From positions 10,462 to 48,241 of the forward strand of contig NZ_BBPM01000057.1 in assembly GCF_000787775.1 (NCBI RefSeq): 37,780 nt of DNA. Reading direction: 5' to 3'. Of the stretch, positions 27,397 through 30,300 are shown one piece after another. Numbering within the stretch: the stretch's first letter is position 1; each line of letters opens with the position of its first letter. Source of the DNA: Streptacidiphilus carbonis (GTDB taxonomy: Bacteria; Actinomycetota; Actinomycetes; Streptomycetales; Streptomycetaceae). Below the pieces are notes generated by a model. That model was not told the DNA's origin. It did no database searches and worked only from the letters and a program-made list of their open reading frames with translations. A program made the translations under genes and the position numbers.

Positions 27397-30300
27397 TACT
27401 GTCCACTCCTGTCCATCTTGCGCAGTCGAGGCTGGCTCGACGTGCCTGCGTTTCTGACCGTGCTCGAAAGCTCTGAAATGAGGTGGGACTCGAAGACCGC
27501 CCGCAGCGGCACGTTCACGCCGAGCACCTTGCGGATCCGGCTGGTCAGCCGGGTCGCCAGCAGGGAGTTGCCGCCGAGTTCGAAGAAGTCGTCGTCCAGG
27601 CCGACCCGCTCCACCCCGAGCACCTCGGCCAGCAGCTCGCAGAGGATCACCTCCTGCGGGGTGCGCGGCGCCCGGTAGGCACGGCCGACCGACTCCGGCT
27701 CGGGCAGCGCCGAGCGGTCCGGACTGCCGTCCGGCCGCAGCGGCAGCCGGTCCAGCACGGTGAACACCGAGGGCACCATGGGCCCCGGCAGCTGCCGTGC
27801 GAGGAAGCCGCGCAGCTCGTCGGGGCGGGTGTCGGGGCCGGTGTCGGGACCGGACGGCTCGGCGGGCACCAGGTAGCCCGCCAGCTGCGCGGTCCCGCCG
27901 GGCCCGCGGCCGGGGAGGGCGGCCACGGCCGCCCCGGCCACCCCGGGGTACCCGGCCAGGACCGCCTCGACCGCGGCCGGGTCGAACCGCATGCCGCGGA
28001 CCGTCACGTCCGTGCCGCCGCTGCCCAGTTGCTCGATCCGGCCGTCGGCGCCCCAGCGGACCAGGTCCCCGGTGCGGACCATCCGCGACCCCGGGGGACC
28101 GAAGGGGTCGGCGACGAAGCGCGCCGCGGTGCGGCCGCCGTCGCCCCAGTAGCCGCGGGCCGACGTGCTGCCCGCGACGTACAGCTCACCGACCGCGCCG
28201 GGCGGCACCGGGGTGAGCGCCGTGCCGAGGACGTACACCCGGGTGTTCGGCAGTGGGGCCCCCAGCGCCAGGCCGCCGTCGTCCGCCGGACCGGTGCCGT
28301 CCGGCACGGTGGACGCCGTGGCGAAGCCGGTCTCGGCCGGGCCGTGCAGGGTGACCAGGCGCGTCCCGGGGACGGCCGCCCGGATCCGCCGCGCCAGCGC
28401 GGCCGGGAGCGGCTCCCCGGTGAACACCAGGGCGTCCGCGCGGACCTTCCCGGTCCCCCGGTCGAGCAGTTCGGCGACGGCCGAGGCGGTGGTGCCGACC
28501 ACTCCGCCGGCCTGTCCGGCGGTCTCCCCGGTGACGTCCCCGTCGAGGGGGTCGCCGGCCGTCCGGACGCCGCCGCCCGAGCACAGTGCGGCGAAGGTCT
28601 CCAGGCAATCCACCCAGGCGTCGGTCCCGGCCCCCGCCAGGGCGGGGGTGCCGGGGGCGGCGGACAGCAGCTCGGCCAGTCCCGGCAGCCGGTCGGCCGC
28701 GGCGCGGTGGCTGACCGCCACGCCCTCCGAGCCGCCGCCGTAGCCGCCGCCCGGGTAGGCGAGGAAGGCGAGGCCCTCCGGCCGCGGCGCCGCCGCCCGG
28801 TCCGTGCCGCCGGGGCGGTCCGCCTCCGCCGCGAGCCGGTCGGGCGTCAGCACGGGGACGCCGCGGTCCGGCAGGGCCGCCGCGGTCCCCGGGCCGGTGA
28901 GCACGAGCAGCGGCCGCGCGTCCCGCAGGACCCGTTCCAGCCCCGGGGCCGGATGCCCCGGGTCGACCGGTACGCAGCAGCCGCCGGCCTTCAGCACCGC
29001 GAGCAGCGCGACCACCCGGTCCGCGGACCGGGGCAGTGCCACGACCACCGGTGTCTCGGGGCCGACGCCGCGCCGGACCAGGCCCAGGGCCAGCCGCTCG
29101 GCCCGCTCGTCGAGCTGACGGTAGCTCAGCCGCACGCCGTCGTCCGACACCACGGCCACCGCGTCCGGCTCGGCGGCGGCCCGCCGCTCGAACAGGCCGG
29201 TCACCGTCGCCTCGGCGGCGTCCGCCGACGGCCCCTCGAACGTCCGTAGCAGCAGGTCCCGTTCCGCCGGCTCCAGCACCTCCACCGCGCCCGCACGGCG
29301 GCCGGTGTCCGCGGCGAGCTGCCGCAGCACCAGGCCGAAGCGTTCGGCGACGGCCTCCGCCGCGGCGGGGGCGAGGACGGTCCGCCGGTACTGCACGATC
29401 AGCCGCATGCGGTCGGGCTCGATGAAGACCAGCACGCTGACCGGGTAGTGGCTGGCGGTGAAGGAGCGGATGCCGGTGATCGAGATCCCGGCCTCCCGGC
29501 TCGCCTCGACTATGCCGGCGCGGTCCATCGGGAAGGACTCGAAGCCGATGATGGTGTCGAAGAGGGCGTCCAGCCCGGTCGCCGCCTGGATGTCGCCCAG
29601 GCCGTAGTGGTGGTGGTCCTTGAGCGCGCCCTGCCGGTCCTGCAGCCCGGTCAGCAGCTCGGCGAGGGTCTCCCCGTGGGTGTACCGCACCCGGACCGGC
29701 AGGCTGTTGAGGAACATGCCGACCATGGAGTCGACACCGGGGACGGCGGGCGGCCTGCCCGCGACGGTGGAGGCGAACACCACGTCCTGACGGCCGGTGA
29801 GCCGGCCCAGCAGCACCGCCCAGGCCCCCTGCACCACGGTGTTCAGGGTGACCCCCAGCCCGCTCGCGGTCCGGAACAGCTCACGGGCGGTCCCGGGGGA
29901 CAGCGGGACCTCGGCCTGGCTCATCACCGCGCCGTCGTCCGCGACCGCCCCGGCGTCGTCCGCGGCCTCCCCGGCCGCCCCCGCCGGCGGAGCGGCCAGG
30001 GCCGGGCGGAGCAGCGTCGGCCGGTCCACCCCGCCGAGCTCCTCGCGCCAGACCCGGGCGGACTCCTCCGGGTCCTGCCGGGAGAGCCAGGCCAGGAACT
30101 CCCGGTACTCCGGGGGACGCGGCAGCGCCGGGGCGCCCCCGTCCGCGCCGTAGAACCGCAGCAGGTCCTGCATCAGCAGCGGTACCGACCAGCCGTCGAA
30201 CAGCACATGATGGGCCGTCAGCACGAGCTCGTACGCCTCCGGGCCCATCCGCAGCAGGGACATCCGCAGCAGCGGCGGCCGGAGCCGGTCGAAGTGGGCG

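What the first reader, a model, noticed from the sequence alone, without database searches (positions are those of the whole stretch)
27690..29215. Module 2 has a full-length A domain that has lost its catalytic motifs
Seen directly: the A3 P-loop is replaced by a glycine-rich run with Glu for Lys, A4 reads TDAW, A8 lacks the GR-D-K pattern, and the A10 lysine is Ser (PDGSPD). Flanking C2 and T2 are intact, the frame is unbroken, and the other five A domains keep these motifs. From A-domain enzymology, loss of the A3 loop and the A10 lysine should abolish adenylation. The line still needs a residue here unless T2 is skipped, so residue 2 is either loaded in trans, supplied by another module, or omitted. 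An intact frame with only catalytic motifs lost suggests the domain is kept as a structural scaffold.
Basis: partly seen in the sequence, partly recalled or inferred. Interest (0 to 1): 0.75.

Follow-up and report, generated by a model that had tools for sequence, protein, structure and literature searches.

The report
Dead NRPS module fed in trans
One module of an antibiotic-making peptide assembly line has lost its amino-acid-activating part, and a separate protein encoded nearby, which has instead lost its own joining part, very probably supplies the missing amino acid.

Summary
A2 (window 29213-27696, minus) misses 17 of 49 positions that are at least 95% conserved in 76 intact A domains (intact median 0, maximum 6); C2 and T2 keep their catalytic residues. 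The cluster is syntenic with the lunaemycin (lun) cluster, whose product has HO-Ile at residue 2. That paper calls module 2 inactive and reads Lun20 as an extra elongation module. Of seven such clusters compared, A2 is decayed in 6 of 6 where it could be read and forms one clade of former piperazate domains. The loader's A is intact in 7 of 7; its C lacks HHxxxDG in 7 of 7, while 8 of 8 module-embedded relatives keep it. T2, not the loader T, carries a conserved docking-like tail. dN/dS (window against nearest ortholog) is 0.74-0.79 in A2 and 0.23-0.56 elsewhere. Most likely the loader activates residue 2 and hands it to C2/T2. Trans-complementation of a dead A is known (albicidin); new is the reciprocal decay and the correction it implies for lun. 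The scaffold idea is weakly supported.

The parts
27396..34049 (-). ORF1, NRPS subunit A1-T1-E1-C2-A2(dead)-T2 (Lun23-type)
32457..34010 (-). A1, code DAWTVAAVCK, the same as printed for Lun23 module 1 (Phe)
29274..30686 (-). C2, HHVLFDG intact
27696..29213 (-). A2, decayed adenylation domain of piperazate-type descent
27474..27695 (-). T2, FFELGGNSL intact
27399..27473 (-). conserved C-terminal tail after T2 ([11 protein letters not shown]), docking-like (function inferred)
9817..27396 (-). ORF2, NRPS subunit with four modules: C3-A3(Piz code)-T-E, C4-A4-MT-T, C5-A5(Piz code)-T-E, C6-A6-T-TE (Lun22-type layout).
8588..9820 (-). cytochrome P450
7364..8557 (-). cytochrome P450
6107..7321 (-). 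FAD oxidoreductase, 77% identical to Lun21 (proposed Ile N-hydroxylase)
3672..6110 (-). stand-alone loader (Lun20-type): partial C without the HHxxxDG half, intact A (code DALFLGLVLK), intact T
34104..35111 (-). thioesterase-family protein (Lun24-type), GHSSG; start codon uncertain
35200..35976 (-). ABC permease, syntenic with Lun25
35976..36983 (-). ABC ATPase, syntenic with Lun26
37007..37780 (-). DUF4097 protein, cut by the contig end; syntenic with Lun27

Best explanation
Module 2 is a split module. ORF1 supplies its C2 and T2; the stand-alone Lun20-type protein at 6110-3672 supplies the adenylation that A2 has lost. Inferred order of events: the loader's A activates a branched-chain amino acid (Ile in lunaemycin by the paper's prediction; code here DALFLGLVLK) and loads the loader's T; the FAD enzyme hydroxylates it there; the residue reaches T2; C2 joins D-Phe to it; T2 passes the dipeptide to C3 of ORF2 with help of the tail. 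Shown here from sequence: decay of A2; intact motifs of C2, T2 and the loader's A and T; loss of the loader's condensation motif; recurrence of the pattern in related clusters; the tail behind T2. Published for lun: HO-Ile lies between D-Phe and the first D-Piz. Inferred only: which T is loaded first, where hydroxylation happens, how transfer occurs (direct loading of T2 by the loader's A is equally open), and the residue in this strain.
For: A2 loses 17 of 49 near-invariant positions. In six of six lun-type clusters in which A2 could be read (window, G687, lun, NBC_00212, G031, G759) the A3 Lys and the A8 Lys are replaced; the six form one clade, 99/96, next to an intact piperazate-type A2 in the same genome. 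The loader's A keeps its motifs in 7 of 7. The loader's C lacks HHxxxDG in 7 of 7 stand-alone proteins, while 8 of 8 module-embedded relatives keep it. Lun20's C resembles C3 and C5 (193-200 bits) more than C2, C4 and C6 (61-103 bits), the ones that follow E domains. C2 and T2 motifs are intact. The tail is behind T2 in the six clusters and in the C33 paralog, and absent from the four loader T domains printed. Between window and G687, dN/dS is 0.74-0.79 in A2, 0.32 in T2, 0.24 in the loader's A. Lunaemycin has HO-Ile at residue 2 and Lun20 is predicted for Ile. In the window's genome the paralogous subunit with an intact A2 has no second loader at E 1e-150 (that contig is incomplete).
Against: No biochemistry and no known product for this strain. 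A2 decay is graded: NBC_00212 keeps the A10 Lys and Lun23 keeps the aligned substrate Asp, so residual activity there is not excluded by sequence. The remaining half of the loader's C is not evolving fast (dN/dS 0.40), so it may keep some role. The loader's T is conserved too (0.34), which direct loading of T2 would not need. No separate transferase is evident; the one thioesterase nearby has a GHSxG motif. Domain subtype of the loader's C rests on similarity only. Clusters were found by similarity to the loader, so presence of a loader is given by the search and only the state of A2 and of the loader's C is independent.
Confidence: 0.78

Rival explanations
1. Module skipping, as proposed for lunaemycin: module 2 is inactive as a whole and the Lun20-type protein acts as a complete C-A-T elongation module between ORF1 and ORF2.
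For: Published reading of the lun cluster (passages); Lun20, NBC_00212 and G687 still have a full-length C domain.
Against: The second His of HHxxxDG is gone in those three and the N-terminal half of the C is missing in the other four, while C2 is intact. The docking-like tail is on T2, not on the loader.
Confidence: 0.07
2. T2 bypass: C2 uses the residue held on the loader's own T as its acceptor, the dipeptide stays on the loader, and T2 is idle.
For: The loader's T is intact and conserved.
Against: T2 is intact and conserved (dN/dS 0.32) and carries the conserved tail, which the loader's T lacks.
Confidence: 0.1
3. T2 is served by another modular A domain, for instance the piperazate-type A3 or A5, or by residual activity of A2.
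For: A2 descends from piperazate-type domains; capreomycin has a module loaded by another module's A (abstract start in listing).
Against: In lun, residue 2 is HO-Ile. The loader's A is the most conserved A domain between window and G687 (88% identity, dN/dS 0.24).
Confidence: 0.03
4. The line is dying or makes a pentapeptide: residue 2 is omitted and the cluster is in decay.
For: A2 is decayed and the loader's C is half deleted.
Against: The other domains tested are conserved (dN/dS 0.23-0.56), and the lun cluster with the same pattern makes a hexapeptide.
Confidence: 0.02

Closest known systems
Lunaemycin cluster (BGC 28a, lun; Streptomyces lunaelactis pSLUN1; PMC9866976, abstract and passages seen)
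   Same: Same gene order ABC-TE-ORF1-ORF2-(P450s here)-FAD-loader; same A1 code; dead A2; Lun20-type loader
   Different: Lun22 has four piperazate modules; the window has piperazate codes in modules 3 and 5 only, a Val-like code plus MT in 4 and DIGIMAGVGK in 6, and two P450 genes inside the cluster. A2 and the loader's C are more eroded here
Albicidin: inactive A domain complemented in trans by the stand-alone A-T protein Alb04 (review PMC8949500, passages)
   Same: A dead A domain between a working C and T, with a stand-alone A-T protein in the cluster
   Different: Other chemistry (cyano-Ala); as described in the review no reciprocal loss in a former C-A-T module and no FAD enzyme partner
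Ramoplanin and enduracidin trans-loading (listed in the same review)
   Same: Stand-alone A-T protein serves a module in another protein
   Different: The review describes an N-terminal extension of unknown kin there; here the N-terminal part is a C-domain remnant
Polyoxypeptin/aurantimycin-type cassettes (PMC3943440, passages; plasmid clusters L074, L075, L077)
   Same: Stand-alone A and T beside an FAD oxidoreductase; the FAD enzyme of L074 is 52-54% identical to the lun-type ones
   Different: The polyoxypeptin authors propose release by a thioesterase and re-activation by a module A. The A domains scanned in L074, L075 and L077 keep their motifs, whereas here A2 is dead

Membership tests
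Dead A domain trans-complemented by a stand-alone A-T protein | A domain between C and T that has lost core motifs | tested here: met
Dead A domain trans-complemented by a stand-alone A-T protein | Stand-alone protein with intact A and T in the same cluster | tested here: met
Dead A domain trans-complemented by a stand-alone A-T protein | Residue at that position matches the stand-alone A domain's substrate | tested here: inconclusive
   Fits in lun by published structure and prediction; this strain's product is unknown
Dead A domain trans-complemented by a stand-alone A-T protein | Transfer to the recipient T shown biochemically | not testable with these tools
   needs loading assay
Lunaemycin-type (lun-type) cluster in the wide sense | Synteny of ABC, TE, A-T-E-C-A*-T, four-module ORF2, FAD enzyme, Lun20-type protein | tested here: met
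Lunaemycin producer proper | Four piperazate modules in ORF2 | tested here: not met
   Only A3 and A5 carry the piperazate code
Complete C-A-T elongation module (published reading of Lun20) | HHxxxDG condensation motif | tested here: not met
   Absent in 7 of 7 stand-alone Lun20-type proteins

The most novel reading that the evidence does not exclude
The dead A2 is kept as a recruitment surface for the loader or its FAD hydroxylase, as dead C (X) domains recruit P450s in glycopeptide synthetases, so that a hydroxylated residue is handed from loader to module without release. Weak constraint on A2 (pN/pS interval 0.66-0.97) leaves this open; the roughly 100-residue core loss in G031 and G759 speaks against a need for the whole fold.
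Probability: 0.12. Interest if true: 0.75.

Novelty: new variant of a known kind. Interest (0 to 1): 0.5.

Why it matters
Related clusters show two C-A-T units decaying in opposite directions, one losing A and the other losing C, with intermediate stages still visible. That is a concrete route by which trans-loading can arise from ordinary modules. It predicts that the published seven-module scheme for lunaemycin should be redrawn as six functional modules, one of them split over two proteins, and it offers natural C2/T2 and loader pairs in which hand-off of a modified residue can be tested.

Tried and rejected
Considered and rejected: sequencing error (G687's A2 is decayed by different changes; GC3 stays high). 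Compensating frameshifts were not modelled, but A2 aligns to the intact C33 domain over its length with few gaps (13 gap columns in the core and 6 in the subdomain). Several independent deaths of A2: the tree gives one clade; caution, window and G687 A2 have unusual residue make-up and G031/G759 sit on a long branch.

Led nowhere: AlphaFold of A2 (mean pLDDT 58.4) against a control, A3 with the same five rows (62.7); both too poor to say whether the fold is kept. The genome-contig scan with A2 gave 9 loci; I looked at 7 of them (L051-L057) and saw no lun-type cluster in the fetched flanks; L051 holds a dead A in a PKS-NRPS setting. PDB searches gave NRPS relatives and nothing on A2's state. 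Pargamicin was considered as this strain's product from recalled composition only; the three papers looked into held citations or a table row, so it stays a recalled lead. In the table the GrsA-278 column is slipped by one (piperazate codes print DVFT there, DVFS). The paper prints K as the tenth code residue of Lun23 A2; I read Arg at the aligned A10 Lys.

Full report
Downstream on the same strand lie two P450s, an FAD oxidoreductase and an 812-residue protein with a partial C, an A and a T domain. Upstream lie a thioesterase-family protein, an ABC permease, an ABC ATPase and a DUF4097 protein. The contig ends at the window's right edge.

A2 has lost the A3 loop and its Lys, the substrate Asp (aligned residue Trp), the A8 Arg and Lys and the A10 Lys, while A6 and most of A7 are kept (motif names and GrsA numbering recalled). 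Against 49 columns at least 95% conserved in 76 intact A domains it misses 17; intact domains miss a median of 0 and at most 6. The pool was 95 HMM hits from 21 loci; 14 were left out (fragments, pieces split by an MT, a CoA-ligase-like hit, and the broken pieces of the decayed G031, G759 and G008 domains), and of the 81 kept five decayed domains were set apart. C2 (HHVLFDG) and T2 (GGNSL) are intact.

Descent: in the same genome a second NRPS fragment (contig C33) has the same A-T-E-C-A-T layout with an intact A2 of code DVFSVAAYAK, the code printed for piperazate modules in PMC9866976 (passages). A tree of 44 A domains puts the six decayed A2 domains in one clade (99/96) with the C33 domain as sister (95/83), among piperazate-type domains. 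The genome also encodes relatives of the two piperazate-forming enzymes of lun on contig C36 (70% over 430 and 65% over 219 residues).

The cluster is lun-type. A plasmid search with the 812-residue protein found 812 records, two of them above 60% identity: S. lunaelactis pSLUN1 (62.5%) and Streptomyces NBC_00212 (62.2%); both are syntenic. Of the pSLUN1 paper I saw the abstract, passages, and part 1 of 3 of its figures-and-tables section. It gives lunaemycin A as D-Phe, HO-Ile, D-Piz, L-Piz, D-Piz, L-Piz; assigns Lun23 module 1 to Phe with the same code as the window's A1; calls module 2 inactive; reads Lun20 (Ile) as a C-A-T elongation module; and proposes that Lun21 N-hydroxylates the Ile. 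That makes seven modules for six residues. Genome searches with the loader covered 297 genomes of the family (46 with a match at E 1e-150), 70 of genus g14 (3 at 1e-200), 394 of the class (1, the own genome, at 1e-210) and 295 of genus g9 (5 at 1e-215). From these I took G031, G687, G759 and G835, the hits above about 55% identity with a short, stand-alone frame. Weaker hits were not examined beyond the eight module-embedded ones.

Across these clusters A2 is decayed in 6 of 6 readable cases (G835's contig ends before A2). The A3 Lys is replaced in all six (window E, G687 T, lun R, NBC_00212 R, G031 R, G759 R), and so is the A8 Lys (T, A, T, T, S, T). NBC_00212 keeps the A10 Lys, and Lun23 keeps the aligned substrate Asp, so decay is graded. 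G031 and G759 lack about 100 residues of the core. The loader's A is intact in 7 of 7. The loader's C lacks HHxxxDG in 7 of 7: the second His is replaced in lun (Q), NBC_00212 (R) and G687 (R), and the N-terminal half is missing in the window, G031, G759 and G835. Of the 12 loci compared, the 8 in which the relative is embedded in a multi-module protein all keep HHxxxDG. Lun20's C scores 193-200 bits with C3 and C5 and 61-103 with C2, C4 and C6, which follow E domains.

Rates: between the window and G687, whose A-domain codes are the same except one residue in A6, dN/dS (Nei-Gojobori, my script) is 0.74 and 0.79 in the two parts of A2 and 0.23-0.56 in the other 19 segments tested, among them 0.32 in T2, 0.24 in the loader's A, 0.34 in its T and 0.40 in its remaining C half. 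So the loader's C remnant is not evolving as freely as A2. The pN/pS interval for the A2 core (0.66-0.97) stays below 1; weak constraint is not excluded.

Which carrier is on the path: T2 is followed by a conserved tail (PRLRKMxRSGQ-like) in the window, lun, NBC_00212, G031 and the C33 paralog and in G687 and G759; the four loader T domains printed have no such tail. With a loader C that lacks its motif, this argues that C2 and T2 do the work and the loader supplies the residue. The loader's T is also conserved and the FAD enzyme sits beside it. In plasmid clusters of the polyoxypeptin/aurantimycin kind (my label) a stand-alone A, T and FAD cassette occurs with intact module A domains; for polyoxypeptin the authors propose release and re-activation (passages). 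With A2 dead, re-activation is not available here, so I infer hand-off from the loader; whether through its T or directly onto T2 is open.

Precedent: a review (PMC8949500, passages) describes complementation in trans of an inactive A domain by a stand-alone A-T protein in albicidin and lists ramoplanin and enduracidin. The kind is therefore known. The search for lunaemycin or Lun20 listed seven papers; apart from the discovery paper I saw only listings of them, so a reinterpretation elsewhere cannot be excluded.

Noticed in passing
L048:577-6816 (-) and L046:15673-19944 (+), genome G008 of the same genus: Another dead A domain in a partial C-A1-T1-C2-A2-T2 protein, in a piperazate-type cluster that also has a stand-alone A-KR-T protein; possibly the hydroxy-acid counterpart of the same arrangement.
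   Followed up: partly
L051:8555-11767 (+), Streptomyces sp. STR69: C-A-T protein whose A domain has lost its motifs (18 of 49 near-invariant positions), beside PKS genes.
   Followed up: no
Own genome, contigs C33 (L043) and C7 (L044): Fragments of a second NRPS of similar layout, with an intact piperazate-type A2.
   Followed up: partly
window 1-2299 (+), continuing from L021: End of a type I PKS cluster on the opposite strand, with its own thioesterase, running toward the NRPS cluster.
   Followed up: no
window 6107-6110: The loader's start overlaps the end of the FAD gene; the first half of its C domain, present in G687, is missing in frame.
   Followed up: yes
Own genome, contig C36 (L099): Genes like lun ornithine N-hydroxylase, piperazate synthase, MbtH and LmbU lie together on a contig apart from the window.
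   Followed up: partly
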